Translations under genes and position numbers: made by a program
Shown: piece after piece, positions 1 through 64,000 of the stretch
Position numbering within the stretch: the stretch's first letter is position 1
How the letters are laid out: every line of letters starts with the position of its first letter
Assembly (NCBI GenBank): GCA_002224055.1
Contig: AZLU01000038.1
Span: 62,001 to 126,000, forward strand
Reading direction: 5' to 3'
From: Pezizomycotina sp. ARF18
Lineage: Eukaryota; Ascomycota
Length of the DNA: 64,000 bases
Notes under the pieces: generated by a model
The model's input: the letters and a program-made list of their open reading frames with translations, nothing else
Databases searched by the model: none
What the model was told of the DNA's origin: nothing

Positions 1-2010
1 CCGTCACCCGTACTATCCTCCCCGCCATCTGGCGTATTTGTACTCGAAGAACCGTAACTGCTCGACGTAGAAGTACTACTAGACGACGAACCCGAACCCG
101 AATCATCCCCGCTACCATCAGAAGCTCCGACGCAGTAATTGTACCCAAGCCAGAAGAATGCCGAGCATCCGTCACCCTGCAGAATGGTGTTATACTGCTG
201 CAGCTGCTCCAGCGTAATTCCGTGCTCTGTCGCGAAGGTAGAACAACTATCGCCGCTTACCGCCATCCCCCAGGTATCGCAGTTTGCGTCGAAACCCGCG
301 TTGCCCTGCGTCGGAGACGGAACGCTGGGGCTAGAAGGTGTAGAAGTTGATGTAGAAGTGGAAGCAGACGTGCTAGCCGAGGAAGTCGAGCCGGAATTGT
401 CCGAAACGCCAATGCAGTAGTTATATCCCAGCCAAAAAGAACTCGAGCACCCGTCGCCTTGGAGGATCGTGTTCCACCCTTCGAGCTGATCTAGCGTAAT
501 TTCATTCCTCGTCGCGAAAGCGTAGCAAGAGTCGCCTTTTACAACCATGTCCCAAGCATTACAATTCGCAGCGAAACCGGCATTAGCTTGCGTGGGAGAC
601 GGCGCGCCAGTGCTAGATGTACCGGTAGCCGAAGAAGTCGAGGTAGAACTAGACGCCAGACCAACGCAGATCCACGTATTGGCCATAGGCCGGAACAGTC
701 ACCCGAGGCTTCTTGATTCCAGGTTTGAAGGTCGGATAGCGTTAAGATGCCGTTGGACTTGGTGACGATGGTGGCGCAGGTATCGCCAGATACAATTTCG
801 TACCACAGTCCGCAGCCATCTACGACGCTCTGGTGCGTTTGGCCGGGCGCGGCGGTAGCAGAGACGCCGAAGGTGCTAGTACCCGTAGGGCTGGAGGTTG
901 TGGTTGTCGGGTTGTCGTCCGGATCGACATGTCCGTTCAAGTTATCCCTCACGCGGGTAATATAGTCCTGGCCTTCTAGATTAACGTTCAGTGACGCGGC
1001 AGTCGCCTCCCACAGCATAATGCCGCCGAAGTTGGAACTCGGCATCACAATTGGCAAAATCTTGGACAGGTCGGTTTGGTTGACGTTGTCGGGCGCCGTA
1101 GGATCCGCGATCAGTCCCAAAAACCACTGCGTATTGCCGCCGGGGTTCGAAGCAGCGACGCTGTTCCAGTTATTGAAATTCGTATACTCGGCGTTCGAAA
1201 CCTGGTAATCGGTGCTGAGCGAGTTCGTGGCCCGGCAAATGGGGTTGTTGTAGTACTGCACGAAAATGTAATCCAGCGCGACGTTAGCGACGACGGAGCC
1301 GAGGGTGGCGTCGGGGTACGGACACTGAGGCGCCGCGGAAAGGTAGTAAGGTTTAGAGCTATCGCTGCTGAACTTTGCCCGTAGCAGCTTGGCGAAGGTC
1401 TCGTAGTTCAAGCCGTTGTCGCTCTTGGAAGCGCCGGTTTCCAGGTCGAGGTCGAAGCCGTCGATGACGGCATCACCGAACGGTCGGCCGTAGCTCCAGG
1501 TTGGATCCGCGGGGCCGAATGCGCTCCAGATTTGTTCGACGGCTTCTTGGGCCTCGGCCGCTGAAGCAAGGTAGACCTCGCTCGACCCGCCAATACTCAG
1601 GAGGACTTTTTTACCAGCTTGCTGGCAGGTAACGATATCCGCCGCAAGATCAGGACAGTTGTAGACAAAGTTCGTGCCTAGGTACGCTGGGGAGAAACAT
1701 TGATTCGCGAAGTTTGTCTGGCAAAAAGCGTTCATAAAGCATAGCTACCGTATCCCTCGCTCAGAAACCAAGCGATTAGTTTACACACCTCTATGACCCC
1801 ACCTTTACCAGCATTTGGAAACTTGGTGACGAAACCAATCGGGATGACATCGATTTCCGACCTCGAGCAAAATTCAGATAGCCTCGGTTGGTCCGCACCC
1901 TGCCCGTAGTAAACAGCCATCGTCGTAGTCGCAACCGCGCGTGTCGCAAGAAAAAGAGTGAATGCTAAGGACTTGAAGGCTCCTCGCAAGCCTGAAAGAC
2001 TGGACGGCAT
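1..2010 (-). CDS. Class III GH18 chitinase with at least three LysM modules (3' end outside window)
   Basis: Predicted secreted endochitinase that hydrolyses beta-1,4-GlcNAc chains and binds chitin through LysM modules. Start chosen at 2010 (MPSSL...), giving a signal peptide that ends near ATRAVA; the mature start is followed by AVYYGQ, typical of class III GH18. Exon 1 is 2010-1789; a 71-base intron (1788-1718, GTGTGT to CAG) joins in phase to TNFANQC. The catalytic motif DGFDLDLE (DxxDxDxE) lies near residues 160-167 and is preceded by the LLSIGG strand. A Thr/Ser-rich linker leads to LysM1 (about 665-812), then LysM2 (413-574) and LysM3 (131-290), the last two closely alike (FWLGYNYC endings). 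The frame changes near 685 inside LysM1, where one extra C in CC restores the usual LWPNTWICVG reading; the new frame then stays open to base 1. The GH18 assignment is firm; the full number of modules is unknown. Confidence 0.93.
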
Positions 2011-4650
2011 TTTCGAAAAAAAAGCCAAAGAATAAAACAAACTAAACGAAGAAAGATGAACAAAAGAGCGTAGTCGTCGAAGCTCCCGATAAAAGAGTGA
2101 ATCGAGAGCTCAAACGAGTTTTTAAAGCAAAAAAAGAATGACGGAAGAAAATTCCTCGCAGACCGACAAACCGTCTAAACGAGGGGGGAGTACGAGCAGC
2201 GATGTGGATCATTTAGTCATATATACCGTGAAGAATTTTTGTAATATAGGGTTCGTATTTTGTTTACAGATCCATCCACAAGGGTTCAAAGATTGGAAAG
2301 GGGCTGTCCCGGGAGAATCGGCAAGAGCGCTCAATCTGGGTAAAATAGGCTTTGTTTGAATTACATGCAGCTAAAACCGGGATATAGCCAGGGACAAGGC
2401 GAGCTTACGGCCAATAACAGCTGCCTAGACTTTCGAGATAGCGGAAATTTGGTCGGCGCTCTTTTTGTTCACCAAAAAGTCTGCAAGGGAATCGCTCGCC
2501 AGGTTGCCACGCATTATTACGAGACAGACCTCGAAGCGACTTTTCCGTATTCCGGTACTCGGACATTTTGGTGCCTTTTGTCGGCGCTCTATATGAGCTC
2601 CTTTATGAGCCTGTTGAATTATAGGGTTCCAGGTATATAATACCGCCGATAACGCCAGGCACCGTGAATATGATGACTGCTTATCGAGGGATTTCAAATT
2701 CACGATATCAATGACTCCACATGTATGGTTAGTTTACATGGTCTGTATCTAAGAAATAGCTCAAGTCAAGGATGCTTAAGCTGACGATAGAACCTTCGTC
2801 GGCTCTGGACATAGACAACTTCCATATACTATCGTGAGCGAAGCTCGCAGGACGAATTTGCTTAGAAACCAAAACTTAGATGACATTTGAACGATCGCAG
2901 TGCCTCGGAGACCCGAAAACAATTTCCAATAAAGCCAATTTCAAACTCTGTCAGTTCACCTTACAAGACGCCAGGAATTCTCGTTATTTAAATTCTATAT
3001 GGCATCCAGGATCATTGTAGAGATCTGCGGATCTTCGTGCCACGCAAATCAGAAATATTTTAAGTTCCGGTGCCCTGAATCCGGCGCGGGATAATTTAAA
3101 ACTCCCTATTTGCATTACGGTATGGCTTTAGGTTCTAAATTGCGTAAGTCGCATGAATAATGCGAAGAACCGTGAATATATTATTGTTTTTATTCTCTTA
3201 GTGAAGCCATTATCCAAGCTCATATTAGCGAAGAGCGAAATATATTTCTAAGTTCTTCATGACCATCTTGTTCTGAGTATGTTCTTCAAAAGCCATACCC
3301 TAATTCTCCATTGTACCGGTCTTTGGCCTTGAGGTCGTGTTTAAGTTCGATCAACTCATGCTTGTCGCACCTACTTGTATCACCAGTTATATTACGCAAA
3401 CTTCTAACGATTACAGCCATCTCAGAACCTTTTAGGGTGATGGCTGCTATGCAATAAATAAAAAAAACGAATGCAGTAAGCCTTACAAAAGGGTAGAAGA
3501 CATAGTTGAAGTCACCTGACAACGTCAAGCCCAGGCGTATTAGACTTGTCAGACTAGTCCTCCCTCAACATGGATGTTTGTGATTGGCTTGCTTCGGATG
3601 CTCAAGTTCGCTCTAGGAGAAGTATGAAGGATGTATCAACCGGTTGTCCGTCGAGTTACATATACGAACAAATCCTCAGCTCTCGCTCAAGGGGAAACCT
3701 AATCCTCGCACAACTATATCACCTATCTCCTTCAATGAATATTCACATTATTCAGAATGACGTTATGCCTCCAGTTAACAGAAGTATCTCTTTTACACTA
3801 ATTGGGAAGATTTGGGTGAGTTACTTGTGATACTTGGCAATGTCAGAAGACGGAATATCCAAAGCCGTATTATGCCATGGTTCTTGGGCTACAGTCACTC
3901 ATTCGCTGCTATCCTTCTATAAATTCGTTATTCAATTTATTAAAACAGATATACTGGTGTATCTGTTCAGAAATCATTCTAACCGTGTTCTAGCCCCTTC
4001 TATACTAGATTAGATGGTCACAGAAACGTTCCAGACGCGTCTTGGAGTGTCCATCAAAAACGATTGGCTTGCTCATGCTCTCGCCCAAGGATTCGTTTTA
4101 ATTCCTCTCCTTCTGATTGTGGCACCTTCTCCGAGGAAACGAATATCATTATAAAACATCTAATAGATCGTGAAGAACGGTTTTAAATTGAGCTCGGGCC
4201 ACCGTTTATTCGAACCGGAGAGCTATAAATACAATTAGACTAAGGACTTTCTATGCCAGTTTTAAAATTCCTCCTAGGCGAGATCCTTCGGGAGGGCTGT
4301 GCAGCATCCTGAGCGAACGGGAAAATTGTTGTTACTAGTAACCGTTGACCATTCATAGATGTTATCATGTCACCGGGCAGCTATTCGCGGCATCATCCAG
4401 CAAATGAGAGGAAGGAGTATTATGCATTTATAGATTTACTGTTTGCGAGTAAGTGTTGCTACATGTGTATTTGTTATAGTAGGTTGAGTTGTATATATAA
4501 AGAGGAAATTAACCCTTGAGCTTAACTCGAATGCTGGGCCAGAGAACGACAGCCGCTAAAGTTTAACCTTAATCTATACCGTCAGTGCCGCATCTAATCT
4601 TATTTCCTGAAGTATATAATATCGAGGTCCCATACGTCTACTAGTTCCGC
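2011..4650. other. Intergenic, no supported gene
   Basis: About 2.6 kb between the chitinase and the next locus. It includes the chitinase promoter side (2011-2140, A-rich). Short open frames at 2138-2640 (+), 3286-3528 (-) and 3570-3830 (+) show no family resemblance, no signal peptide and no splice logic, and I do not treat them as genes. Confidence 0.6.
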
Positions 4651-5090: not shown

Positions 5091-5480
5091 GCAAGGAAGC
5101 ATCCTGGGGAACTTAACATCATGTTAGAAAAAGACAGATTGCAAAAGATTGGTAGACAGATGGGAATATGATAAACATTTGTCGGCACCCGTATACACAC
5201 ACACATAACCATGCATGAATAGGGTTGGATTCCAACCCAAAGCTGGTTTCGCCACTCGCACTTTGCTTGATATTACCTTGTATCGCTTTTTTACGCTCGT
5301 GGTGTTGATTTTCATGGCTGTCCCCAAGCACTTTATGCTTGAAAACGACTGCTGTACTGAGTTTAAGACTGTATATAATATCCCAGAAACGCTTGACATT
5401 CAGCATTTTTGTACGTCAACTTAAGCACACTTATTTACAAACAAACCCTCGGTGAAAAAATAGCTTGTGCACAAGATAGT
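5091..5480. other. Intergenic, no supported gene
   Basis: Overlapping open frames on both strands (5119-5424) have no coding features; I see only a short CA-rich stretch near 5198. Confidence 0.6.
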
Positions 5481-7499: not shown

Positions 7500-9112
7500 T
7501 CAAGATTTCGAGTGGAATCTAGGCCTGTCATGCTCGCTATCGTCGCTTGTCACCCTATCAATGGATATGGTACCGAGAACGCTACTAAAATTAGTATCCT
7601 TCGTATCTTTGGTAGACAAGCTGACGTCCAGCGGGTGCTTCTTGCTGCCCTTCCCCTGCTTGTCGCCAGAATCACCCATAGGCGACACTTGCTGTAGATC
7701 CACAATCTGACTATGCGATTTCTGGCCCAGCAAGCTAGGAGCGCAGCGTACGACGAGAGCTTTAAGGGCCAGGACACAGGATATCATGATCGCTAGATCG
7801 ATCTCGATGATGCCCCAGATTCCAGGTAGGGATTCCTTGTAGGTGTGTCCGGGCCGTTGACGAAACTGTTCGTCGCAACGACGCGGTTTACGGATGCTAT
7901 GCAAACGCTATCCATGAACCTTAGGTTAGCATCGCCGGGGCGCGAAGGAACAACATACTCGACCCTGGGAAAACATGGTAAACGTACAACGCGCCAATTG
8001 CAAACATGCCATAACGATAATTTTCTCGCGCATCTTCATCTTAAGATGCCAGATTACAGGCATCGGAATAATCAGCAGTGCCCAGTCTGTGATGATATGG
8101 CATATACCCCAGGCCGTCCACACTCGTTTCCGGTTGATGCACTTGGCGGCAAGCGGATCTCGCCAGTACGGGATCGGGTCACACTGGAACGCTACGATAC
8201 ACATTCCGAAAACCGTGACGAGCATCACCACAAAGAAACAGATAGTAGGAATGCGGTGAAAGGGCTTGTGCGGTATCAGACCCCAGTAGAATATTATGAT
8301 CGAGGTCTTTATAAAGGCTAGAGTCGGGCAAAGAATATTTCGGAGAAGAAAAGCCACTAGGTTTTTTCAGAAGGGGTGTTAGTGTTCAACATTTTCAAGT
8401 AATCGCGATTACACGGATTAACGAAATAAAAGTTGAGAGCATACTAATAAGTTGGATTTGACCATGTGCCAGGAGAGATCCCATATGTGTCGGCCGCTGA
8501 AGCCCAAACTTTCGTCTTTAAAGCGAAGAAATCGTCGTATTGGCGAGATATACAAAAAGTTTAAAAACATAGTTGCATGATAAATAGTGGCTTACTCAGG
8601 GACATAATGATCGCATAAAACACGCTCGCGCACTATGTAGATTGGCTCTAGTAAGTTTTTGTTTTCTCAGGGCGTTAAATCCAAGGAAAGTTCAAGAAAG
8701 CGCGTCCCAACTTACAGATGCAGCAACAATTGCCCAATCCTCTTTCCGGATCTTGCCGGTGACGAATCGCCTTACATACAACCGAAGTAGGATTACGGGA
8801 AGCGTAATAAGTGACATAACTCCGTAGAACCTTATCGTTGACGGTGCCTTGTTCACGTGTGCGGCGTAGTTTCAAGGAAGGCTGCGAGTTCCATGAGCGT
8901 GAGCGTTGCGTTGGCCGTCGAGCCTGTCATTCTGAGAGCCGGAGTGATGGCTTTTTCTATGAGGAGATTGTGCTCCTCTGATCCGTCCAGTAATGATGGG
9001 ACGACGTGTTTCATTGTCATATTCTGGTATGGTGTCACACCACAGACCAGGAGGCCAAGTTCAGCAACTCCTCGATCACGGAGTATGGAAGCTTGCTGAC
9101 GTCCATCTCGGC
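7500..9112 (-). CDS. Fungal rhodopsin-domain (seven-helix) integral membrane protein
   Basis: Member of the fungal rhodopsin-domain family (Pth11-related membrane proteins without visible CFEM domain). Readable pieces in order: first helix and loop RLYVRRFV...RKEDWAIVAA (exon ending 8716, donor GTAAGT at 8715); LGFSGRHIWDLSWHMVKSNLL (8515-8445, the family's GLGxHIWD box); an exon from 8356 beginning WLFF, with LAFIKTSIIIFYWGLIP, FQCDPIPYWRDP, WTAWGICHIITDWALLIIP and MPVIWHLKMKMREKI. A later frame supplies PGIWGIIEIDLAIM and a cytoplasmic tail ending at 7500. The frame breaks near 8323 (one more C gives FFAPTLAF) and again near 7905-7960. The N-terminal 9112-8853 part is the least certain, and the second helix is not clearly visible. 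Function: unknown; some relatives act in surface sensing. Confidence 0.8.
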
Positions 9113-37700: not shown

Positions 37701-38057
37701 TATCAAAAGCTTTGCGTGTGAGGGTTAGGCATACTTTAGAAGAGTGTAAGTGTATAGTACATTCGGTTGGACTTTATAGACGAAAGCGAGATATATCGTA
37801 TGCCTGCGTTTATTGTATATAGATAACGTCAAGCCAACCTGGCCAGTGTAAGTAAGTCCTTTATAAGGTCAAAATTTGGTTGGCATATTTAACTCGTGAT
37901 AAGATGGTTCCTGCCAGTAGTAGTAGCTTGAGCAAGCTGCTAAATACTAATCGGCTAAAACCCTCGATTAGTTTCAATATATGCAAGATTCTATCGAATG
38001 TTTTAAGACCCCCCCTTTCTTCCTTTTCACGCTTCTCCAGCTCTTCGACGCCTCACA
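34720..38057. other. Gene desert, no supported gene
   Basis: About 3.3 kb. T-tracts at 34789-34811 and 36354-36376. Open frames at 35428-35661 (-), 36919-37137 (+) and 37211-37471 (-) match nothing I know. The frame 37880-38074 (+) runs into the retroelement; whether a gene was interrupted is not decidable here. Confidence 0.55.
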
Positions 38058-38062
38058 ATCCT
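38058..38062. repeat. Target-site duplication ATCCT (left)
   Basis: Same five bases at 43006-43010, directly outside the right LTR. Confidence 0.85.
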
Positions 38063-38302
38063 TGTTGGATGTAAGTAGTAAGGAACATCAAACGACACGA
38101 ATACATCGAGAATTGCCCGCAGCGCTATGCATCGACCGACCTCGGCCGAGCTCTATAATGAACGGCATGCATCGATGCGAGGATATTAACATCGTAAAAT
38201 TCGTTTTAATATGAATTCCTTTATATATAAACGGCAGGATACTACCCTCGATAGATAGTTTTATTCTTTATACAATTAACAATTTTAATCTTTTATCCTA
38301 CA
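38063..38302 (+). repeat. 5' LTR of Copia element 1
   Basis: About 240 bases, TG...CA. Its left (outer) half keeps many C/G positions that are T/A in the other LTR. Confidence 0.9.
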
Positions 38303-41300: not shown

Positions 41301-42773
41301 AAGTAGTACTTACTATAAATAAATACTTAGAATAGATCGTTCGCTATAAGATAAGACTAGTAGTTCTAGGCTATTTATAAGATTAATAAAATAACGATAT
41401 ATATTTACTAATTATTAATTCTCTACGACCCGCGTTATCTAATAATAGCCGCCGCGTTAGATCTCGAGATACGATATAAGAATATTACCTCTATATTTTT
41501 AGAGGGGATTTAGCGCCTAATTAGTAAGTAAATATATTCGCGCCTAAAAGTATATACTAATATAGAATAATTCTAATAAACTAATACGTAAAGAATAGTA
41601 TACTACTCTACTACTTACTAAATCGATATATAGCCTACTATCTCGCTATTAATCTAAAAGTAAATTTTATAAAGTACTAACTAGTATAGATTATATTAAT
41701 TACCCTATAATATAGTATATAATATTTAAAAGATATTAATATAAGAGCGTCGGTATATATTTATATTTATAACTTAACTATTATTATATATAACGAACTA
41801 ATTAATAAGATAAAAAAACTACTTAAACGGCTTAATATAATAATTAACGACGCGGTATATTCTTAAAAGCTTAAATTAAGAAAAATTACTATAAAAAACG
41901 ATATACTTATCGTAAAAAATATTATCGATAGAATTACTACTTAATATATAATATAGAAACTATATAGTCGCGGCGATACTAATAATTTAATATCCCGCGC
42001 TACGCTATCCCGAGGAAAATTAAATCGTTAGACTAGAGAACTATATAATAAACTTAGAGAAACTAAGTATCTAATAGTTTAACGCGCCTAGAACTAGCCT
42101 TCGCTTAGTTAGAATTAGCTACCTTTACTACCTATAGGGACTTATAATATACTGCGATATAGCGGTTACTACGCTATCTATAAGGGACGCGTAAATATAG
42201 CCTATACTTCGGCCCGAGTAATACTAATAAAGAAATATAGCCTTAGAGATATATAGATAGCGATTTTACTTAGCTAAAGACGCCGCTTAGTTAGTAGCTA
42301 CGCCTTTATATATACGGAAGAGTAGTATCGTTTATATCTTATAAATAAACTACCGTCGCTATTTTAATAATAGAGGTAGATATACGGTATTGCGTTATAA
42401 CTCGGGAGGTAGTAGCTTAGAAGGAACTTTAATTAAGTCTACTTATAAACTAGTAGACCGGAAGCTACTAATAACGAGAAGAATAATTTCTATTAAATTA
42501 AAAATTAATAATATAGGCGCCTACTACCTAGCTAAACGCGGCTCGTAACGTTAATAAACGAACTAATATATCGATATTAAATATTATTTTATTAGGAAGA
42601 AAATTAAAGATTACGAGATCGCGCTAGCGGCGCGTCGATGGCTAATAACGTCGCCGATATATTTACTAAACCGCTAGCTCTACCGGTATTCGTTAACTAA
42701 GTAACGCTAGGAGTACGCCTATCCTAGATATAAAAGAATAGGGAGGCCTCGGCCCGCAGCGGGTAAGGGAGGC

Positions 42774-45208: not shown

Positions 45209-45215
45209 CATTTTA

Positions 45216-45246
<31 letters not shown>

Positions 45247-46879: not shown

Positions 46880-48299
46880 CAATGACCGAAAGAGTCCTAT
46901 GTACTAGTACGCGGAGTGATCGGTTGAAATATCCTCTGAATGTAAAAAAAAAAAAGAAAAAGAAAGAAAGAGAAAAGCCGATCCATATGGTTTCAAGTAC
47001 AAAATGATAGACCGTTCATATCGTCCACGCGTAAGTAGACTACTTTTGGACGGATTTCATCCACATGCCATGGAAAGTGGGGAGAGCCCACCAGAGGAAC
47101 TGGACAAATCAAGGACGAAGCTTTACACGTCTCGAGGTCATGAGAACAATGGCAGGCGAGAGTATATAGATATTCCAGTGGTGGCCTGGTCGCCTTAGTT
47201 GTTTCTATTCCACTTCGAAGCTATGGGGGATGTCTCATACGTGAATCCCTTTTGGTATTTCTTTTTGTAGGCCGCCTGATTTTTTTTTTTTTTAACGGTT
47301 GATTCAATACCAATATCTTGAAAAGCATCTGTAAATAATGATTACTCTATAATACGGCTCCGTTGCAGCACACGTTGATATAAGTCTGAGGCGATGGTGC
47401 ACCCAAGCTATAGTCCTTAAACGAGAGAGCGGGGTGTGGTTAAGGTGCATAATAACCAACTCATTCAGTACGGAAATCACACCAGACACTACCCGGGGAT
47501 TCAAAAATTGGATACAGGAACAGCGTGCGTCGTGATGAGTGAGAGATATACGGAAGCTCAAGGGTACGCTTGATGCGTCGATAGTGATTCACATATCCGC
47601 CCGGTATACTGATTCATATATTAGAATGATGTACTTCCCGATTCACAAAACCGAAATTCGTTACGGACCAGATGTACATAAAGAGACGGATAGTCACGAT
47701 TTTGGGAAAGCCGTTATTATGTATGCATGTTAAGAGATGCCCCGAGCCGCTGAGGGGGATGTCTCGCTTGGACGCTCAACAAGGTAGATACAGAAGCAAA
47801 TGAAATAATCAGAAACACACATCACTGGAACGGGATCTGGAGTAATATGCATGAGTTTGAAAGGGAACAGAGCGATTGATGGACATGGAAGTTGAACTCG
47901 AAGTGGAAGATACGTTCATGAAAGTAGCCGTAATTCAAATTCAAGTTCAGGCAAGTGAAATGGAAGAGGAACTTTTTGCTTGCATGTCTATATATTCTGT
48001 ATACTCTTCGAAATCACCTCCTCCACAAGTCCATTCTCCATAAATTTTAATTGTCCCAAATACATACCATCCGAATTATAGTTCCCTAGTAGACCGAGAA
48101 ACAAACAGAAAAAATACTCATAGAACCGAGCTTTCTGTTTCTTGACAAAACGTAGGACATGACCGATACACCGTGCTGGTGCAGATCTATGCGATATGGG
48201 ATGGGATCGAACTATTGGATTTGATACAGAATTAACCATCTTCACTGATGAAATATACGATGCTATATATAATGAACTGACGATACTACAATCTCGATA
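46880..48299. other. Intergenic, no supported gene
   Basis: A minus-strand open frame at 48359-47988 (Ser/Arg-rich start, hydrophobic patch) and a plus frame at 47004-47198 have no recognisable features. Confidence 0.5.
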
Positions 48300-48804
48300 A
48301 AATGTATGCAATCTGCCTTGAAGGCGCGCAGCGCCTCGTCGTCGTGATCTTCTCGACATCTCCAGCTCAGAACTTGATACTTCTAGCTGAGGATCCTTCC
48401 TTCTCAGCTATACAAACATTTCTCGATGCCTGTAGATTTGGTGAGCCTCTTGGCTTGCTGGATAGCCGGCACACCGAAAGCAGAGCTACGGTATCCAATT
48501 ACAGACACGGTAGAGGTTTTTCGACACCACTGTTACAAACGAGCCTACGCTCTCGCAAAGAAGTATGTAAAAACAGCACCAGCAGTTAAAATTGGCCAAG
48601 TTTATCAGAACACTTTCCTGTCCGATTTCGTGGGCCTCCACGGGAGGAGGCAATAGCGCTGAAAAGGAAATTAATGAACCGCATGTCGTGGATATTATGG
48701 CACTGGAAGCGTGCACAGAACGTTTCACACCACGCCAGCTCATGGACGCGATGGCGGACGAAGATACTTTCAAGTTGGATAATCTGGCGACCGAGTCGCC
48801 GTAA
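48300..48804 (+). CDS. Orphan paralogue copy 2
   Basis: Longer relative of the 46.6 kb locus. A first frame (48302 on) reads RLVVVIFSTSPAQNLILLAE; a second, from ATG 48426, reads MPVDLVSLLACWIAGTPKAE, LRYPITDTVEVF, HHCYKRAYALAKKYVKTAP, IGQVYQNTFLSDFVGLHG; a third continues INEPHVVDIMALEACTERFT and QLMDAMADEDTFKLDNLATE to a stop at 48804. Frame changes fit the pattern seen in other host genes here. Predicted soluble, mostly helical, about 165 residues. Family not recognised. Minus-strand frame 48486-48773 is a shadow. Confidence 0.5.
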
Positions 48805-50188
48805 TCATTTCTTTTGAGTGATGGCGTGGGGACCGGTTTGTTTGGTAGCTCTTTCTCGCCTCTGAAACGCTATCTCAGTGCCTCGAAAGCAAGGCACACT
48901 TCAACGATAAAATCAAAGCAAAAGAAATGAAAAAACTTGTGTACCTGTCTGTACGCAGGGCAAGAAAAGGTTATAGTGACATCTCGAGGACCAATTCAGT
49001 GGGTGACGGGAGAGTGCTTCAAGGAGTTGCCACGAGATTGCGAAGCGGACTAGTGTTGGAATGACCGACTGTGTAAGTTTGCGGCGTGAAAGAGGAGAAA
49101 CCATCAGGCTTGATTTGATGAAAGGAGAGCTTCTGGCTACAATGAACGGAAACGGCTACAATGAAGGGTAATTTATCAATATTATACGTATTTGATAATA
49201 CGGGGAAAGATGTAGCTTCTGAAGTTGTAAAAAGCCTACCGAATAATATTGTATTTGTAAAGCGTGATACCGGTATACTAATTGTGAACTGAGACAGGAT
49301 AACATCTGCCTATTTCACTTTGCTAGAAGCAAGAAACTACTTTGCCTTCCAGGTAAAAGAAAGACGAATTTACCCGTATACTCCTTTCGAAGGCCTGATT
49401 CCATAACTATCGCTTAAGGCTGACAACTTCACCGTCTTATTCGCACCACATAATACTCTTTTCCTAGCTCAATTTACTCTACAAACAAGTGCGCACAGGA
49501 GTTAGACGTTTCTCGTTACCTTTTAGTTACGCCGGTACCGACCTACAGACTATACCTCCCGAGACAATTGGCCAGGCGGAACACAGGTTCAATTCTTCGT
49601 TCAAGTCGTGAACCTGCCAATGACTACATACCCCTTCCAAAGCTGTAGAAATCAGCAGGAACTTCATGAGAAGCTTTATCCCAGCCCTGAATCAGTAGAT
49701 CGAAAGGTGTGGAAGGGACATTTCGACATGCTAATGTGGTCGATAAGAATCCAGTTCAGGCAGTGGGGGGCGACGGAGAGACGATTAGCCATTCAGCTTT
49801 ATCACGGTTCTTTCGGATAATTGAACCTCTTCTGTAGCATCATGTTTAACCATTTATTTGACATATTCAACTGTATCGGTCATGATACGGACGCAGGTGT
49901 TTTTATGGATCGAAGAATTTAGTAATAACTTAGCATGCTCCAGCTCGATGACCGTTGTATCCTCCATATTTAGAGTGAGGCTAATATCAAGCTCCAAAGA
50001 TTTAGTAATTTCTATTTCTGAGGTTGTGAATCCAAGCCTTTTCATACGCGGTACGTCTAAAGAGTAAGACCGTTTCAGCACACCTAGGGAACTTACTTGT
50101 AGCTTAGGGAAGACGGATAATATAAAACTCACAATGTTGACACACTGACAATTGCGGTGCCGCATTCGCCAAAGGAGAACCTTAGATG
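48805..50188. other. Intergenic, no supported gene
   Basis: About 1.4 kb. Overlapping frames at 49854-50165 on both strands have no recognisable content. Confidence 0.55.
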
Positions 50189-50193
50189 CAAAA
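50189..50193. repeat. Target-site duplication CAAAA (left)
   Basis: Same five bases at 55097-55101. Confidence 0.9.
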
Positions 50194-50507
50194 TGCTAGC
50201 TATTAGGCATGCCAAAGAGGTATGACAAATCTATAGGCATCGAGATAATGCTTGTATAGCTAAGGAACAAGGAACTTTAGCTAGAGATATTAAGATCTCA
50301 GCTATAGATGTTAAGGAGATTACGACGATAAGGCTCTGCGAGCCGTCGAGGTAGACTATATATATTATATTAAGATTATAGTATTATTAGTTTATTATAT
50401 ATAGTATCGTATATTCCCTTAGTTAGTCTAGTTAGTTCTATAGTTAAATCTATAAGTTTAATCCTATCCTATATTATTAGATATTATACTATATATCTAC
50501 GCTAGCA
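50194..50507 (+). repeat. 5' LTR of Copia element 2
   Basis: 314 bases. The left half is C/G-richer than the same half of the 3' LTR; the right half is more T/A-rich. Confidence 0.95.
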
Positions 50508-50519
50508 GGTTATAAGCCC
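50508..50519 (+). other. Primer-binding site of Copia element 2
   Basis: GGTTATAAGCCC, adjoining the 5' LTR; complementary, with one RIP-type transition, to the anticodon arm of tRNA-iMet. Confidence 0.7.
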
Positions 50520-53500
50520 GGTTAGTAATATATTTTAATAACTAACTTACTTCTTAATCTCCCTAAACGATTATATCTTACGATATCTCTCTTACTAAAG
50601 TTTAACGAGGCAAAGCTAAAGGCTAATCTCAAAACTACCTCGATTAGAGTATATATATAATTACGTTCCTCAAGTATAATAAAGTCTAGGATATTACTAG
50701 TAAACCGCTTAAGGCTACGGTAGCCGATGTAGAGCTAAGTACTAAAGATTAAGATAATAACTTAAAGGCGTATACTATTATTAAGCTTATTATAAGGTAA
50801 AGACTCGACGTGCTTATCTACGATCTACTAATAGTAGCGCGAATAAGGTATAGGATACCTTAAGTTCGGCGTATATCGCTGTTACTACTATTAGTAAGCC
50901 TTATATTAGGAAACAACTAAGGTAGATTTAACTTAAAAACGAAGTTAATATTTAAGGATTTATATAGAAGTATCGAGATCTTATTAGAACGTATAATAAG
51001 ATATTAGGCTTAATCTTAACGGAGAATACTAAGGCGGAGAAGGCGAGAAGACGGGCTAGGTATAGGCTTAAAGGATAATATAGCTATAGTAGAGGCTATT
51101 AATCTCGTCTAATAACCTTTAGTAGCGACTAGGAGACGTTATTACGAACTTTTAGTAGATAATAGATTTAATAGCAAAGAAACCGACCCTTAATATGCTC
51201 GAGAAGGCGCTACTCGTCGAAGAGGTAAAGCGTAGATACGATATACCAAAACGTTAACTCTAAGAATAATAAGGCGCTATTTAGAAGGAATAGCCGAGGT
51301 AAAATCTAAAGGAACGATAAAAAAGCTCGTAAGTTTAAAGTAAATACTACTACTACGATAAGGTTAGATATAAAGGGCCGATTATAGAAAACGTATAAAG
51401 GATAAAAAGGATAGCGGTAATAACGGGGTATTAGGCCTTATAGTATAAACCTTAGTACGAGATACCGGCTTTTAGAGAACGATCTAATAGTTTTTTAACT
51501 TAGGCGTATCTTCTTATATAACGATAATAAGAAAATATTTCTACTATAAACCCCTCTTAAAGCTATAGAATATTATAATCGGTAATAGAGAAGTACTATA
51601 GGCTATCGGCACTAGCTTAATATTTATAAGGCTTAATAGGGAGTACGGCGGTAGTCTTATTAAACTTAAAAATACGCTATACGCTCTAAAGATAAAGTAT
51701 AGCCTATTCTTAATCTCTCGCGTAGATAAGATAGGATATATAATAACGATCTAATAAGGTAGATATATAATAACTAGACCGAGACTAAAATTAAAGCTAC
51801 CATAAAAATAGGACTATAGGAGATCTTAGGTAAGATTATAATATTTATAAGGAAAAATTTAGCTCTCGCTACTATATAAGAAGTATATAAATAGCTCGGA
51901 TATATCGGTAAGGATTATATTAAGCGAATAATTAAGTATAGAAACATTACCGGCATTACTAAAGACGGTAAAGATCTATAGGGCTATATTAACTATAAGG
52001 CCTGCGGACTTACTAAATTAAAATAATACTAAACCGCGAGAAACCTTAATTAGGTAAGTATAAGCTAATAGAGATAATCTTCTTAGATTTCTACTAATAG
52101 GCGTATAAAGAGCCTAGGAGATTATATAGGGTTTATTACCTTCTTAAAGGGAATAGTCGGAAGTCTTAAATCTACTTTATAAAAGATAAAAAGGTAGAGA
52201 CGATACTCTCGTGTTTTAATAGTACTCTTAAGATAACTAAACGTTAGTTAAACCTTAAGCTTATTAAGCTATAATATAACGGAGTAAGAATATACCTTAA
52301 TCGATAGACGCTATAACGAAGTAGAGATTATAGTTTATACTTTAGCTATATACGTATCTTAATAGAATAGCGTACCTAAGAAGCTTAATTAGATTCTTAT
52401 TAATAGATTAAAGGTAATATAGCCGTATTGGAATTATCGCCGTAGCTATAGATAGAGGCGGTAAATTATTATAATCTAATTTATAACTATACGCTATTAA
52501 GGCCGCTCGAGGTACTAAAGAATAGTAAATAGACGATACCGTAGGAAAGATAAGAAGGTAGAACTCCTAATATCTTAAACTTTAGATATTTAGTAAACTA
52601 TATTACGTATATATTAATAGTAAACTTTAGAAGAAGCCAGATATACTACTAAGAAAATATATTTTATAGGCCTAGAGGCTTATAATATCTACTAAGTCTA
52701 AAATTCTACTATCTGTAAATATTAATCTATAGAGATATTAGATTTCTAATTAAATTAATCTTTAAGTACGTAACTTTGTAGAAGATAATAAAGATCCTCT
52801 TAAATATATTAAAAATACCTTAGAATAAGTTTAGTCTAAAGATAAAATAGCGATAGCGCTAGATTATAATTAAAACTTAACTTCCGATTATTAATTAGAT
52901 ATCTATAAGACGATTATACTAGAGCAGCCTAATTAGCTAGATTATAAGAATAAGAGCGAAGATCTCGATAACGCTAGTCTATAGCTAAGATCTAAGGATA
53001 CTTACTCTTATAGAGGAAGTTATATAGATACTATAAGATAGATCTACGACGATTAACTAAAGATAATAGATATATTCCCAAAATTATTAAAAATAAGATC
53101 TAGTAATTAAACTATAAATACCCTATAGGCTAGAATATATTAGTAAAAATCTAACGGCTATACGCCTTAGAGAGAAGGCCTATAAAGGATTAATAGTATA
53201 TATCGATAAACTAGAGCCACTTACCTATAAAGAGGCTATAAGCTCTATAAACTATAAGAATAGCGTATATCGATAGATTAAGAACTATCCTTAATTAAAG
53301 AATAAACATATAGAAACCTATAGATTCTCAAAATCTCTTCCTAAAAGATAATATCGTCGACAGTAAATAGATATTTAAGTATAAACGCGTACTACCGATT
53401 AGATTACGATACTTAAATCGAGACTAGTCGCTTAAAGCTTTATATAAAATAAGGGATCGATTATAACGAGATATACGTATTAATAGTTAAGATATTAATA

Positions 53501-54782
53501 GTAAGGCTATTCTTCGTATTAGTAGCTAGCTTAATCTTAATATAAGTAGATAGATATAATAACGGCCTTCTTTATACCTAAACTAAAGTAAAGAATTATC
53601 GTTAGGCCTCTAGAAGAGAGTAGAATCGATAGATTAGTTTAGTTAATAAAACTCTGTATAGCCTTAATAGTTACCTCGAGAATAATACGAAAACTTACTT
53701 TAGTTCTTAAATTACTAAAGTTTAAAGTTTATCGGCTTAATAATAGCTTATTTATTAGTAAGGATCGTTAGCTAATAATAATTATCTATGTTAATAATCT
53801 ATTAATAGCTAAATCTAATAAATATAAAGTTAAAATACTTAAGCGAGATCTTAGTTATACTTTAAAATAAAGGATATAGGGCCGGTAGCCTATTTCTTAG
53901 ATATATAGATAGAATAGACTAGGTCTAAATTAACGTCGCTTAGTACTATATTAGTCCGTATATATATAATCGCTTTTTAAGAGATTTAGGCTCGAGGATA
54001 CCCAGGATTAGTACTTCTATAAAAGAGAGGTATCCCTTAAACGGAGGATTAGATACTATATAGTAGTATAGTATCGATAGATAGTAAGAAGTTTAATCTA
54101 TATTTTATTACTAGGCTAACTAATACCTTTGCTATCTCGACGTTAGGTATATATTAGCGAAGTAAATTAAACTTACGAGAAGGTAGTAAGAAGATACTAC
54201 GATATTAGAAAGAATCCCTCGATCGTACGCTTACGTACTATACCCGTAAGATAGAGGATAAGATACTAGATCTACGTATCTACGTAGACGCTAACTAGGC
54301 CGGATATAAGCTTATTCGTAGATCTATTACCGGCTATGTAATAACGTTTAACGGAATAGCTATCTTATACTATTTGAAGAAGTAACGTACTGTAGCTACT
54401 AGTAGTACTAAGGTAGAATATATAGCTATAAGGGAGGCTTTACGGAAAGCTCTCTAAATACTTTAGATATTAAAGGATATATAGCGAGCCTTTAAGTTTA
54501 AGGCTTCTAATAGTATCGAGATGTATATAGATAATTAAAGTACTATTAGTATTATAAAGGATCTTAAATACTATAGTAGAACTAAGTATATTAATATATA
54601 ATATTACTTTATAAGGAAACTAGTTTAAGAAGGAACTATCGAGCCTCGATATATAAAATTAGAGGATAATATCGCGGATATACTTACTAAACTACTTATA
54701 AAGATATCTTACGATAGCGCTATAAAGGCTATAGGTATAAGAAGATAGGATAAAGATTACTAGTATTATCGATAAGAGGAGG

Positions 54783-55096
54783 TACTAGCTATTAGGTATA
54801 CTAAAGAGGTATAACAAATCTATAGGTATCGAGATAATACTTATATAGCTAAGGAATAAGGAACTTTAGCTAGAGATATTAAGATCTTAGCTGTAGATGT
54901 TAAGAAGATTACGACGATAAGGCTCTATGAGCCGTCGAGGCAGACTACATACATTATATTAAGATTATAGTATTATTAGTTTATTATATATAGCATCGTG
55001 TATTCCCTCAGTTAGTCTAGTTAGTTCTGTAGTCAAATCCACAAGTTCGATCCCATCCTACATTATTAGATATCATACCATACATCTGCGCCAGCA
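54783..55096 (+). repeat. 3' LTR of Copia element 2
   Basis: 314 bases. The opposite polarity: the right, outer half is the better preserved. Confidence 0.95.
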
Positions 55097-55600: not shown

Positions 55601-55720
55601 TATTTGAGGAGAATCTTCGAAGCATTGCTGCGTAGCATGGGCGTAATTCTGAGAAGATGGAAAGTAAACGGGAGGAAATCACCACAGCCAGGCTTCTGCA
55701 GAACTTCAGGGCAAGATTAA

Positions 55721-57528
55721 TCGTTCGAGGACGGAATGATTAATAGCGCTTAAATTACCTAATACATGGGATATGTTATGATTATCTATACTTCATAGAT
55801 GTCAGTGTTGGTTCTAAACAAAGAGTCTAGTTTATCGAGCTTTGGGTGGCTCGAGTTTCCCTTATTAGCTATCAGAAATGGATGACGAGAAGTCAAAATC
55901 TCGGATCTTCTATTACAGCGTACCGACCGCTTATAGCAAAAATCTCTATATATATTGCATTGCATTCAAAGAGAGACCTAAGCTTGCTGTAGCATTTTGG
56001 AACGCTTAATGTGAAGTTGATATAGACGTCCTTCGATTAAAGCGCTTGCCAATCTCGATAACAGGCTCTCAGCGCAAGCATTCAAATTCATTCTCGTTTT
56101 ACCGGAACTCATACCATCAGGTAAACTGGTAATTCCCTGGTCAAGCGGTTTCTCATAAAGTTCGAAGTTACATCTGCGACTTTTTTTTTTTTAGGGAAAA
56201 AAAAAAAAAGAGAGAAGAGAGAAAGGAAGACTCAGAGAGAGAAACAAGGCTTTCGCTCAATACTGTGCTAAGGCAACAGTATTCTGAATCTTTTATCTAT
56301 CCCAGGGCCCTGCGACGACGAAATCTGGAATGGGATAGAGATGATTTACGAACGACACTATAGCCACGTCCTGAGGACGGCTGAGAGATTTGTATCCAGA
56401 TCGAAAGCAAGTCATATAGCCTGCGCGGTAATGGACAGGTTTTACCGCAATTTGACCGTCCCTTCGAAAATCTTAAAGATTGGAAGATTACTTCATGTAT
56501 CTGATGAACCGAATGTGGTTATTCATGGAAATATGGACGCGACGAGGCAGGGAGATTAGGAGGGATCATATTCTACATGAACTGCAAAAGTCCGGCTGAG
56601 GCTCTTCGTCTGAAGAATTGAGAGTGGGGGTTCTCTCGCCAGGCTGTCTCTCCAACACCTGAGGCGTAATCGAGGAGGGAGAATATTTCGCCTCGCTGCT
56701 ATTAACCTCGCGCGAGAAGCTTAGAGAGGGAATGCCTAGGAGCGAATCATAGACCGTCTTGTATTCGTCGCTTTTTTCCATCGCATGAAAAATCTTTGTC
56801 TCTTGACCGCTGAGTGAATAATGATGTTAAAATTTGCCACAATCAATGAGCAACTGAAAGCGTAACGGAGCGAAGTTGTTTGTTTACGCTCCTTTTCGGG
56901 GATTCATCATTACCCCGAGCTGGAAATGGAACCCGGAACCACATCGGTTGCGTTGACATCTTCACAGCCGGTGTCCCGATTTAACACTCAAACCCGACGT
57001 TCGGGCTATCAGCTGCAGACGAGAAACACCTCGAAGGCTTAGCTACACGACATCATCTACCTGCTTATTGGGACTTAAAACGAAAGACGAATTCGCACAG
57101 CCTCACGGGAAAATTTCCTGTTGGCTTACTCTCCCGAATACGAGTTGAGGGTTATCATGCCTCGAGGATAGCGCCGCCGGAGTCTCCAAACTGAGGTCCG
57201 CAAATGCAGGCATTGTTCAACATGGTGAAATCTGTATCCTGTACACAGAACGTACGGAATTTCTTAATTTTAGAATATGACTCTTTTCATGGCCCTCACG
57301 CCTCAGCTGGTTCTAAGCGGAGCCCTAGGTACTGGTCGTATAAATGCATCGTTCGCATTCCCCATCGCGGCGAACAAAGGTTTCTCTATATTCGCGATAT
57401 ATTCCCCGATATTTTATCTTCCGCATTGCTAGTCCTCTATCTGGTCCCCCAATATTTTTTTTGAACTGATTGAGTGAACCTTAAATTAATTCATCCCGTA
57501 AGAGAAACACTCTGGGATAATCATCGTC
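55721..57528. other. Intergenic, one doubtful ORF
   Basis: A plus-strand frame 56341-56559 (YERHYSHVLRTAERFVSRSK...) faintly resembles the CYKRAYALAKKYV block of the 48.3 kb orphan, but the likeness is too weak to call. T/A tract at 56181-56208. The 57204-57464 frame has no NLR N-terminal domain that I recognise. Confidence 0.4.
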
Positions 57529-60500
57529 ATGGCCGACACTATAGATATTACCCCGTCTACCGACGACTACGACTTGAATAACCGTTACTATATGACGACC
57601 CGCTGTGCTTACAATATTCATAAGGCTGCATTGAACGACCTAGTTGCAGCCCATCTCGAGCGGAAGGATCATGGGCATGGCTGTCGTGACGATCTCGAGC
57701 ATCGGCCAGACTTATTGGAAGACCCCCGCTACAAATCATGGCGGGACGGCAGGAAACAATTTCTTAATATAGTCGGCAAGGCGGGAACGGGTAAATCTAC
57801 TCTTGTCGCTGCTGCTATTCGAAATTTGTCTTCGCTTTCGGGCATAACTTCCGGGAAGTGCGCCTCGCCTTCTTCATTCGTAGCGACTTCCATCTCGACC
57901 ACGCGGAATTTGTGTTTCTTACCTTGGCCGCGCAAATTGCGCGCACTTCCGAGGCTGCGGGAAAAGCGATTGATAGCGGATGGACCGCCGCTCAAGCAAT
58001 CGATGAAGGTGTCGGATGGACAAACAAGTGGACAAGAAGCACTGGATTGTATATTCTCCGCCGCGGCAAAGGGATTCGAGAAAATTTACATCGTCCTTGA
58101 CGGCTTGGAAGAGAACCCGGATCGATATTGGCTTGGGAAGGAGGCGATGGACGTTTTTGCGGAAGTCGCGAAGAAACATCCTAATTTTCACATTTTGATC
58201 ACCAGCGAACAGAGAATCGAACTATACACGAATGAGGACGCAGATGATAGCTTTGGTACTATCGAGCTTGACGGCAATGATAAAGAAGCATTATCATGGC
58301 GACCGCGTGGATTTAAGTCGGAAGTGATCATGGCAGACGAGAGATTTAAGTCTCTCGACCAAGAGTCTTATGAAAAACTCATCGCCATGACCTCGATTTT
58401 GGGTCGTCTTCTCGCGAAACTCCAATTGATTATCGTGCACAGGCGAATAACCTCGCAGGGTGAAGGAAATATAGCCAGCGCTTTTGTGGAACTTCCGAAA
58501 TCCATTGACGATGCCTGGCGAGACCTCATTGAGACGTACATTGGGGATGACGGTAATTATCTACGTAGGATGCTCATATTCATGGCCTACACGTACGAAC
58601 CACACGGCTTCGACGGCACGGAGCCGCTCGGAACCGGCAGAACAATCAACCTCGCGGAACTCACAGACTACGTTCTTACCGAACCTGACGATATCAAGCA
58701 CGACACCGAGACTCGCTGCCGAGGGATTGATATTCGGCAATGGGAAGACATCTTCCTCAGCATCAGAGATATACCAGTCCACGATTCTCCAGATTCCGAG
58801 ACCGCCAAATTGAAAGTCCGGAAGGAATGGGTGTCTCTTATCCACCTAGTTTAAAGCGATACGTGCGCTCGTGGATCGGAACCGAAGAAGCGCATGCCGA
58901 TATAACGAGGGTGCTCATGGCGTATAACTGCTTCGAAGGATTCAAAGATGACTTCGACGACAATGAAACTGACGAGCAGCAAGAGCAAAGCACCAGCAGG
59001 AAGGTGGGTATCCGGAATACGAGCGTTACCCTTATAGGTTCCGCTGGTACGCCGCGGTGCATCTGACGAAACACGCCAAGGAGTCGAACATGCAGATGGA
59101 GGAGCGGTGGTATGAAGAGTTTTTCTCGCCGCAGGCACTTAAATGGAAGTCCGTGACCAAATTTGCGACCGTCATCTTGAAGGTATCGCCGAAATGGACC
59201 GGATCCTCCACAGCACCCAGCTTGAGATGCTTGTGCGGGACGACGTGGTGGAGTGGATACGGCACGTAGTTCGCGATGGTGTACCGAGGTACATACCTTT
59301 CTTCAATTCGTCTTGCGAGGGCGGTGTCTGTTCCCTTCCGCCCAATATCTCACCGATATCAGACGTTAAAAGCCCAGAGGCGTTCGAAGTCCTCATCAAC
59401 GCACCAGGGATAAAACTCAAAGGGGCTTTGAGCAGTGCCGTCTGGATTGGAGAAGAAGCCGTGCAGAAGCTACTGGAGCTTGGCTGCGACCCTAACGATT
59501 CCGATGGGGAGGCACTCGCGACGGCGTGTCGCAGGGGCGATTTGGCGATGGTCAGGTTTCTCGTACAGCATGGCGCCGACGTAAATTTGATGCCTAGCCC
59601 GAAACCGCCCGGCGTTCCGGTGGAGAGGCGCTCACGAGCGCAGTGTACGGAAATCATCGCGACGTCATCCTATTTCTCCTGGAAAAGGGAGCGGATATGA
59701 ACTCTGGCGCCGGACATCATTGCACACCACTATTCTGTGCTGTGGAGTGGGGATATAAATCCACGATGGAATTATTGCTGGAGAAAGGCGCAGACCCCAA
59801 CGTCGTTACGCCGAGAGGGACAGCGTTACATATAGCCGCTCAGAAAGCCGCCAGTCAGGCGACGCCCGATCGAAGGATATCTTGATGACACTCCTAGCCC
59901 TCGGGGCAGATCCAGGAGTTGTCGGGGTCGCTGGGGTACGGCGTTACAGGCTGCGATACGGAGCGGTGTCCCGATTGCTACCCGCATATGCTAGAGGTCG
60001 TAAGGGCCCTCCTCGGGCATCCCCGTGGCAAACATATGGTCAATACAGTAGCCGGTAAATATCACACAGCTGTAGCAGCGGCAGCTTCGTTGAATGCGGG
60101 CGGTATTGAAAAGGTGCTAGAGTTGCTCAGGGACAACGGTGCGGATTTGGACTTGCCAAGAGGTGTGCCTCTGCTCTATTCAATTCACAAGGGGAGCCTC
60201 GAGGCGGCTATCTTCCTCCTTGAGTCCGGCGTCGATTCTAACGGCGTTGTAGATCCTGAGTTGGCGCCGCAACCGTACTCTGGTCGGTTCAACCCCTTTG
60301 ATATGAACGATGGAGGCGAGATGGTCCAGACCTTGAAGGAATTCGGGACGCCTTTACATTTAGCAGCTGCAAAAGGCAGAAACGATATAGTAGAAGCCCT
60401 TCTGAAACATGAAGCGGACAAGAGCAAGTCAGGCGGGTATTATGGTTCTGCTGTGGATGCCGCGAAGCGGAGAAGAAACAAAGACATCTTGGAACTGCTA

Positions 60501-60578
60501 GGTGTCGACGTCCAAGATTTTGATGATACTATGGAAGTGGAAACAGGGGATAAGGACGAGGAGATGGCAACAAAATGA
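57529..60578 (+). CDS. NACHT-ankyrin STAND (NLR-like) protein
   Basis: ATG at 57529. A short lead (HKAALNDLVAAHLE, YKSWRDGRKQFL) precedes the NACHT P-loop GKAGTGKST at residues 83-91. Helical FHLDHAEFVFLTLAAQIART follows in a second frame (57858 on), then Walker B KIYIVLDGLEEN (186-196) and sensor FHILITSEQR. After the NACHT part: EEAHADITRVLMAYNCFEGF, EERWYEEFFSPQALKW and EMLVRDDVVEWIRHVV. About nine ankyrin-type units follow, for example AVQKLLELGCDPND, LAMVRFLVQHGADVN, TPLFCAVEWGYKSTMELLLE, KVLELLRDNGADLDL and GTPLHLAAAKGRNDIVEALL. The tail is acidic (DDTMEVETGDKDEEMATK). Frames break at several sites; near 57854, 59620 and 59937-59955 an added G restores family reading. No N-terminal effector domain is visible. 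Fungal NACHT proteins can act in allorecognition; the role here is inferred. Confidence 0.9.
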
Positions 60579-60792
60579 GGGCATGGGTGAGCCTGGACCA
60601 GATCACGATCTCGTAGTTGAGAGCGAGCTAGAGGATGCTTTGACGATTATTAAAGGGAAAAGCGTCAGAATTACTATGAGTCCACTTATGATTATGCAGC
60701 TTGGTTTCATGTTATCGTTTATTGCCCTAGATCTAGATTTCAATTACTATGTTACAAAAAAGGTTACGCGCATTTAAAGCGATTTAGTGCTG

Positions 60793-61659
60793 CTACGAAG
60801 CCCTTCTGGCCATCGTGTTGAGCCAAAGAGCGAGCCTGTAGCCTCCCCGTGCGATCTGTCCTTCTACGATCGGAGCCGACCGCTGGAAGTAAGCGCCGCC
60901 CAATTCATGGTCGGTAACACCAGCGACGTCGGGTCTGAAAACGTCTTCGCAATTCACTTATTCGTATCAGCAGCCCATGCCATTGCGCAGGAAGTCGCAC
61001 CCTGCTTGCTGCCGACATCGGCGCAATTCCAGGTACGGTCGTACTTGTTGCCAAATGCACCGAAATGGCCAGAATATAGCTTAGCACAGAGGCGGTTGGA
61101 CCAATCCACAGCGTGAGCCAGAGATGAGTTACCGGCGATTTTCTCGGGGATACTGAAGTCCCAGACTGAGTGCAGATTTGTCTTCACGCCATCGAAGGTA
61201 ACATTAATTTGGTTACCGCCGAGGGCAAGGTTTTCGACGTGTAAAGGCTGGGCGATATCGCCGAGGAAGTGGATAACGAATTTCATCGCGTCGGCGCGCT
61301 GGTCGGCGGGCAAGGTCGTATCCTGTACGCGTGTGGTGTAGTTTGCGATCGCGCTGACGACGCAACCTTCGGGTCCGCAGTCCCGCTGGAGTTTACACCG
61401 CAGGTGTGGGAGGTTCGTCCTTGGCGTCGATGTAGTGCAGAGCGGAAGACCACTCATTGCCGGGCACCTTGCGCCATGTATCTGGCCATGTCGCGGCGTC
61501 TGTCATGGGCACATCGCGAAGGATGGATTTTACCCATGCTTTGGCTTGTGGCGTCATCAAGTGTTCTGCGATCAGGGCTACCGTTTGGTGGCCCATCGGT
61601 CCCCAAGCCATAGTGGCAGGGACGAAAGCAGCGGACAGAGTGATTAACGATGGACGCAT
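60793..61659 (-). CDS. Secreted S1/P1 zinc nuclease
   Basis: Single-strand-specific endonuclease/3'-nucleotidase family, trinuclear zinc. Start 61659: MRPSLITLSAAFVPATMA is a signal peptide whose cleavage exposes the zinc-ligand Trp of WGPMGHQTVA. Further landmarks: DAATWPDTWR, LHYIDAKDEPPT, RDCGPEGCVVSAIANYT, KFVIHFLGDIAQPLH (zinc His/Asp), GGNQINVTFDG, NLHSVWD, CAMAWAADTN, HELGGAYFQRSAPIVEGQIA and GGYRLALWLNTMA. The frame breaks near 61403, 61388 and 60956; CCC for CC, CC for C and GG for G restore PCGVNLQRDCG and TNKVNCEDVF, giving about 290 codons without introns, the usual family length. It lies tail to tail with the NACHT gene, 214 bases apart. Likely extracellular nutrient (phosphate/nucleotide) scavenging. 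Confidence 0.93.
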
Positions 61660-62867
61660 CTTTGTTTCTGTAAAAGAGTGTATTGGTTTCTTTGGAGTTA
61701 CTGGCGCTGATGAGAAAAAGCGAAGATGATGCAAAGGAAGGAGCCGGGTTTATATGGATTTCAAATTCGTATATAGTTACCGCTCGATGGACTAGGCATT
61801 ACCTCCGAGGATATAGACTCGGATTGAACCAACACCCTTGACTCTCATTCGTCAATTGCGATAGATTCGGTGTCGATCGCCCAGTTACAACCTTTCCAGA
61901 ATGTGGAAAGACATTCTTCACTATCACCCCAAACACCTACCCGTTTCTGTGAGTGGCTCTAGGGTGTTTGCGATAAGACCAGCAGAAACTTTCAAGGCGA
62001 CACTTCCGATTCCACAGACTGGAGCTGATTGGGAATGTCAGATCCACAGAAAGGAATCTGGGTATTCAGCAACTCCACATTATCCACATTATCAGCTAAG
62101 AGCGAGATTATGAACGATGTTTTTTATGCCTGAGTTAAGAAGTTGCTATTTGGTGCCAGAGATTGAATCTGAGAAAAACGGAAGGAGGCTTTTTTCGCCT
62201 TCGCCGACCTTCTGAAATAATGCTCCTCCACGCGATAACCACTCCCGCTCGCGGCCTTGTGGATTTCTTGGATCTCCACGAAAATATATCCAATGGCCTT
62301 GGCGAGCCCCTCAGATCGCATACGATCCGGGTTTAAGGGCCTATGGCTCAAGACTGTGCACGTGGGAGCTAAAGTTGAAAAGGCGGAGTCCTGAATCTAG
62401 GAACACCATGCCGACTGTTACTTAACTAAAGGGTTCCTATGGCAGTGGTAACCTATCTCTCGTGATAGATTAGTACCCTAGGCATAGGCTTTATTGTTCA
62501 TCCTGACATGACTATAGCAGAAGTTTAGAGGCACGCTTAAACAGGTGCTGTCGTCGGCGGCCTCATTTCTAAGATCCCTTAAAGTTTCCATGTAAAAGGA
62601 GCGTTTGAGCTTTAAGTTCAAGATCAATAGTAGAAAGTCTGTTTTATACTTTCCCTGCTTTCACACCGTGACTTTTATTATCTTTGCCAATAGTATCACG
62701 ATATAGCGCTATCGTAGAAAAACATACACGTACTAAATTCCGTCGAGGCAATCTAGATCGCAGGCGATGGCTAGCTTCGCCGTATCACGACTATCATCCG
62801 TGATCCGACCTCGCAATAGGCCTCGTACTTGTCTGGTCCTGTCCCTGCTATCAGTTGTAACTTCAAA
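61660..62867. other. Intergenic, no supported gene
   Basis: About 1.2 kb; includes the upstream region of the nuclease. Frames at 61901-62351 are not convincing. Confidence 0.6.
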
Positions 62868-63842: not shown

Positions 63843-64000
63843 AAAATATCTAACCTGGATAACTCCCTCCACACAGAACTGTTCACCCCCCCAACAGAGC
63901 AATTTGGAATGTAAATATCCGAAATATTCTCCATATAATTGTTGAATCAACGCGCGAGGACGTATTCCACTTAAAACCGGATAATCACTTCGGCGAGATC

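What the first reader, a model, noticed from the sequence alone, without database searches (positions are those of the whole stretch)
1..64000. Frame breaks in host genes coincide with a missing base in a G or C run
At the breaks I worked through in the chitinase (685), the Cys-rich protein (6254, 5777, 5755), the rhodopsin-domain gene (8323), the RRM gene (13500), the paralogues (20975, 21113, 23991), the zinc-finger gene, the nuclease (61403, 61388, 60956) and the NACHT gene (57854, 59620, 59940), adding one G or C to an existing run restores the expected family sequence. I found none there needing an added A or T. Independent genes all breaking in this way fits consensus errors better than decay.
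Basis: partly seen in the sequence, partly recalled or inferred. Interest (0 to 1): 0.75.

Follow-up and report, generated by a model that had tools for sequence, protein, structure and literature searches.

The report
Missing bases from genome assembly errors
The broken genes in this fungal DNA are most likely not dying genes: short runs of one base, mostly G or C, have lost a base in the assembled sequence, which is an ordinary sequencing artefact.

Summary
The window lies in a 46.36 Mb, 408-contig fungal assembly. The breaks are not local: 11 of 11 alignments, covering nine HSP70/CCT-family chaperone genes on nine contigs, carry frame events, 60 in 11,766 coding bases. Of these 50 are one missing base, 5 minus-two, 4 plus-one, 1 plus-two, with no in-frame stop. 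A likelihood fit puts essentially all one-base losses in runs of two or more, rising with run length and commoner in G/C runs. Dispersed 5S rRNA genes, which have no reading frame, show it too: 9 deletions in 960 bases, 7 G/C and 2 A/T, all in runs. Clean E. coli dnaK gave 0 events; simulated random deletions gave no G/C-run bias. Decay and programmed frameshifting do not fit.

Corrections: G/C is dominant (about 80-87%), not exclusive, and in 5S the G/C bias at equal run length is unclear. Of 15 named coordinates, 8 agree in frame sense with a missing base (by eye); 7 were not decided. True run lengths and the sequencing platform are inferred; no reads are held.

The parts
200..2110 (-). GH18/LysM chitinase gene with a frame step near 685
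   Evidence: Pfam Glyco_hydro_18 and LysM on pieces in different frames; three-frame reading by eye, missing-base sense. Pieces were looked at apart only.
7926..8800 (-). Fungal rhodopsin-domain gene with a frame step near 8323
   Evidence: Pfam Fung_rhodopsin, profile 59-183, in 7926-8366; the upstream part appears in another frame by eye
57502..60578 (+). NACHT-like (NPHP3_N) gene followed by ankyrin-like repeats (the latter name is by eye); 9 frame steps counted, 8 in the missing-base sense
   Evidence: Pfam NPHP3_N; three-frame reading by eye
60700..61800 (-). S1/P1 nuclease gene with frame steps near 61403, 61388 and 60956
   Evidence: Pfam S1-P1_nuclease E 2.7e-34; PDB 1ak0 match to one frame piece; three-frame reading. 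The frameshift-aware alignment covered only the single-frame middle, 61388-61055, and holds no event.

Best explanation
The frame breaks are residual consensus errors of a long-read assembly that was not, or not adequately, polished; the cell's DNA is most likely intact. The length of a short run is called poorly in single reads, so the consensus loses one base from runs of two to four, mostly G or C, giving about five frame events per kb of coding sequence. Shown: presence on every contig examined, sense, run dependence, G/C excess in coding genes, presence in an untranslated RNA, no in-frame stops. Inferred: that accurate reads carry the longer runs, that the data were long reads, and, weakly, that the platform was PacBio-CLR-like rather than nanopore R9-like because very long runs are present.
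For: 11 of 11 alignments of HSP70 and CCT genes carry frame events: 50 minus-one, 5 minus-two, 4 plus-one, 1 plus-two in 11,766 nt, 0 in-frame stops. Fitted losses per 1000 runs: GC2 22, GC3 63, GC4+ 257; AT2 3, AT3 23, AT4+ 0; single bases 0. G/C share: bootstrap mean 0.85, 0.67-1.00, 150 replicates. 5S rRNA: 9 deletions in 960 nt over 8 pairs, 9 of 9 in runs of two or more, 7 G/C; apart from two pairs of overlapping fetched loci, no two of the 15 loci share a match longer than 280 bases, so they are separate genes. Controls: clean dnaK 0 events; 54 simulated uniform deletions recovered as 50 minus-one and 4 plus-two, no G/C-run bias. Precedent: nanopore-only fungal assemblies with frames broken mainly at homopolymers (PMC7500977, passages).
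Against: No reads were available. The hard-interval test showed no G/C-run enrichment (G/C runs of 3+: 10 of 50 against 7.1 expected) and its own fit gave G/C 23.8, A/T 26.2 of 50. With a flat prior the likelihood model gives G/C 28.1 of 50, and only 14 of 50 events are assigned with over 90% certainty (all G/C). In the control the model assigned 35.9 of 50 to A/T when 25 of 54 were, so its base calls are rough. In 5S, runs of three lose about equally: G/C 5 of 40, A/T 1 of 12. An untallied 5S copy (L078) has one loss in a single base. A published long-read assembly had more deletion errors at A/T than at G/C runs (PMC12007338, passages). Seven of 15 window sites were not decided.
Confidence: 0.95

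Rival explanations
1. Gene decay: the window's genes are pseudogenes, perhaps helped by repeat-induced point mutation near the AT-rich blocks.
For: AT-rich blocks at 38-42 kb and 50-54 kb would fit RIP in this genome.
Against: The same kind of break hits HSP70 and CCT genes on nine other contigs; no in-frame stop codon in 11 of 11 alignments; 5S copies with 0-2 substitutions carry deletions.
Confidence: 0.02
2. Programmed ribosomal frameshifting or RNA editing at runs restores the proteins.
For: The frames together spell conserved proteins and most steps have one sense.
Against: Untranslated 5S rRNA genes carry the same kind of deletion, and near-identical copies differ in which run is short. 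A shared motif was not searched for.
Confidence: 0.005
3. A real mutator lineage (for example mismatch-repair loss) has contracted short runs.
For: Rise with run length and excess of one-base losses fit slippage in kind.
Against: About five frame events per kb in every chaperone gene examined should be lethal (general knowledge); very long runs (T24, C15, G11) are present, although I cannot tell whether they were longer.
Confidence: 0.015

Closest known systems
Homopolymer indels in nanopore-only assemblies of the fungus Drechmeria coniospora (PMC7500977, passages seen)
   Same: Frames of conserved fungal genes broken, mainly at homopolymers; corrected there by short-read polishing.
   Different: Here nearly all frame events are losses, already in runs of two to four, mostly G/C; there long-read polishing introduced more insertions than deletions.
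False deletions described with Kastor in a long-read assembly, Pss508 (PMC12007338, passages seen; platform not seen in them)
   Same: Indels mostly false deletions, associated with runs of two to eight bases.
   Different: There errors at G/C runs were about half as many as at A/T runs; here G/C dominates in coding genes.

Membership tests
Long-read consensus homopolymer error | Mostly one-base indels | tested here: met
   54 of 60 frame events are one-base (50 minus, 4 plus); indels of three bases would not show as frame events
Long-read consensus homopolymer error | Located in runs, rate rising with run length | tested here: met
   lnL gain 19.6 for run length over uniform; 9 of 9 tallied 5S deletions in runs of two or more. 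The cruder interval test did not show it.
Long-read consensus homopolymer error | Spread over the genome, coding and non-coding | tested here: met
   Chaperone genes on nine contigs, 6 of 8 compared 5S copies, this window
Long-read consensus homopolymer error | Accurate reads show the longer run | not testable with these tools
   No reads are held
Pseudogene decay / RIP | In-frame stops and relaxed constraint beside indels | tested here: not met
   0 in-frame stops in 11 of 11 chaperone alignments; not tested on the window genes themselves
Programmed ribosomal frameshifting | Confined to translated genes | tested here: not met
   Deletions of the same kind in 5S rRNA genes
Programmed ribosomal frameshifting | Shared slippery signal at the break | not tested
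   No motif search was run

The most novel reading that the evidence does not exclude
A viable fungal lineage that really has contracted short, mostly G/C, runs genome-wide and lives with it through recoding or through a second, intact nuclear genome.
Probability: 0.005. Interest if true: 0.95.

Novelty: not a real feature. Interest (0 to 1): 0.12.

Why it matters
It is a warning about this assembly: gene models, pseudogene calls, missing protein families, tRNA and 5S counts, and claims of gene loss drawn from it are unreliable until it is polished with accurate reads. No biological novelty follows.

Tried and rejected
Hard-interval test: each of 50 breaks was placed in a median 5-base interval and compared with random intervals. 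No enrichment (G/C runs of 3+: 10 of 50 against 7.1; of 2+: 27 against 29.8), and its fit split the bases evenly. I set it aside because, on looking at the printed stretches, several intervals seemed shifted where the references (species recalled: human, yeast, cattle) differ; it was replaced by the likelihood model with a simulated control. This choice was made after seeing the result.

Repeats in the window: the 491-base tandem copies and the LTR-like pair have too many substitutions and longer gaps to isolate run errors. tRNAs: ARAGORN found a gene in 11 of 20 fetched loci off C50 (20 of the 21 such rows), but rows are chosen by score, so no error rate was drawn. Mitochondrial contig: 13 tRNAs in 10 kb, but introns and few G/C runs make it a weak test; not used. 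The rDNA request did not complete three times. Paper searches for the organism or assembly (listings seen) gave nothing usable; searches for a G/C-biased platform signature (listings seen) named none that I could verify.

Dropped before counts: of 15 5S copies, L069 and L073 were references and 8 were tallied; L078 was printed but not tallied (4 losses, 2 G/C and 2 A/T, one of them in a single base) and L080-L083 were left out as too diverged. 15 is a lower bound: 47 of 1990 candidates were scored. Of about 15 chaperone-family loci, nine were aligned; those on C53 (219 kb), C20, C70 (123 kb), C208, C44 and C10 were not. The 10 frame events other than minus-one were not in the run model.

Full report
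Setting. The window is C38:62001-126000 of a 46,361,250-base, 408-contig genome. Fung_rhodopsin, NPHP3_N, S1-P1_nuclease, Glyco_hydro_18 and LysM matches and short GT-AG introns in the chaperone genes point to a filamentous fungus; the species is not known to me.

Is the observation there? Read by eye in three frames, 8 of 15 named coordinates (685, 8323, 61403, 61388, 60956, 57854, 59620, 59940) step frame in the sense of one missing base. Seven were not decided for want of a family reference; at the paralogues a TGGTAAGT stretch in both copies looks like an intron donor. One of nine steps that I count in the NACHT gene has the opposite sense. The one frameshift-aware alignment of a window gene covered only a single-frame stretch of the nuclease and tests nothing.

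Is it local? No. Whole-genome searches with Cpn60_TCP1 and HSP70 show chaperone genes split over frames with abutting profile positions. With an aligner that I wrote, which allows frame events and introns, and PDB relatives as references, 11 alignments covering nine genes on nine contigs (C3, C24, C49, C53, C54, C70, C99, C139, C303; C54 and C99 in two pieces each) gave 60 frame events in 11,766 coding bases, 5.1 per kb: 50 minus-one, 5 minus-two, 4 plus-one, 1 plus-two; 19 introns; no in-frame stop. In the aligner a stop (-9) costs less than a frame event (-13 or more), so stops were not priced out. All 11 had at least one event (1.8 to 12.3 per kb). Six further family loci were not aligned.

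Which runs? The likelihood model over the 50 minus-one events gives about zero losses in single bases and 22, 63 and 257 per 1000 runs for G/C runs of two, three and four or more, against 3, 23 and 0 for A/T. Fitted counts are G/C 43.5, A/T 6.6 of 50; bootstrap G/C share 0.85 (0.67-1.00). An earlier form of the fit gave 39.9 of 50, a flat prior 28.1 of 50, and 14 events were G/C and none A/T with over 90% certainty. Run length improves lnL by 19.6 over uniform, base class given run length by a further 6.9, base class alone by 0.2. So run dependence is the firm result and G/C excess the weaker one. A cruder interval test showed neither.

Controls. Clean E. coli dnaK gave no frame event. Of 54 simulated uniform deletions in it, 50 were called minus-one and 4 plus-two; the fit gave 35.9 of 50 to A/T although 25 of 54 were A/T, and 3.8 to G/C runs of two or more where 6 of 54 were. 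The method thus does not create a G/C-run preference, but its base calls are rough, and this is one gene.

No reading frame needed. Fifteen 5S rRNA matches were found (47 of 1990 candidates scored). In 8 pairs of closely similar copies (960 bases, 5 substitutions) there are 9 deletions in 6 of the 8 copies, 7 G/C and 2 A/T, all in runs of two to four, and one inserted A. Per run: GC2 2 of 52, GC3 5 of 40, AT2 0 of 46, AT3 1 of 12, AT4 1 of 6, single bases 0 of 584. At equal length the G/C bias is not clear here. Except for two pairs of overlapping fetched loci, no two of the 15 loci share a match over 280 bases, so they are separate genes. Untranslated RNA speaks against ribosomal frameshifting; near-identical copies speak against old decay.

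Cause. Very long runs are present (T24, T19, C15, C12, G11 in the window; one 80-base A or T run elsewhere). This speaks, weakly, against a basecaller that shortens long runs and suggests low-depth or unpolished PacBio-CLR-like data; that is inference from recall of platform habits, not a result. In print: homopolymer frame breaks in nanopore-only fungal assemblies (PMC7500977, passages); false deletions at runs of two to eight bases, more at A/T (PMC12007338, passages); [quoted passage not shown]

Verdict. Consensus error, 0.95. On checking I lowered this by 0.01, because the G/C bias rests on one model and is not clear in 5S at equal run length. The finding is right in substance, overstated in 'no A or T', and ordinary.

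Noticed in passing
G000 contig C50 (231,088 bases), sampled as L085: A very large, evidently mitochondrial contig: 33 of 54 tRNA rows, 8 of 8 Proton_antipo_M rows and 5 of 5 COX1 rows lie on it.
   Followed up: partly
window 38001-42000 and 50001-54000: AT-rich blocks (GC 0.25-0.33; most of the window 0.41-0.55), as repeat-induced point mutation would leave.
   Followed up: no
window 50196-50495 and 54785-55084; inverted copy 48225-48420: LTR-like direct repeat pair, 90% alike, around an AT-rich block, with a more distant inverted copy (77%).
   Followed up: partly
window 32165-33029: Tandem duplication with 491-492 base spacing; the stretches listed are 96-100% alike.
   Followed up: partly
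L069-L083: 5S rRNA genes lie on many contigs and are of at least two sequence types, differing by about 11 substitutions.
   Followed up: partly
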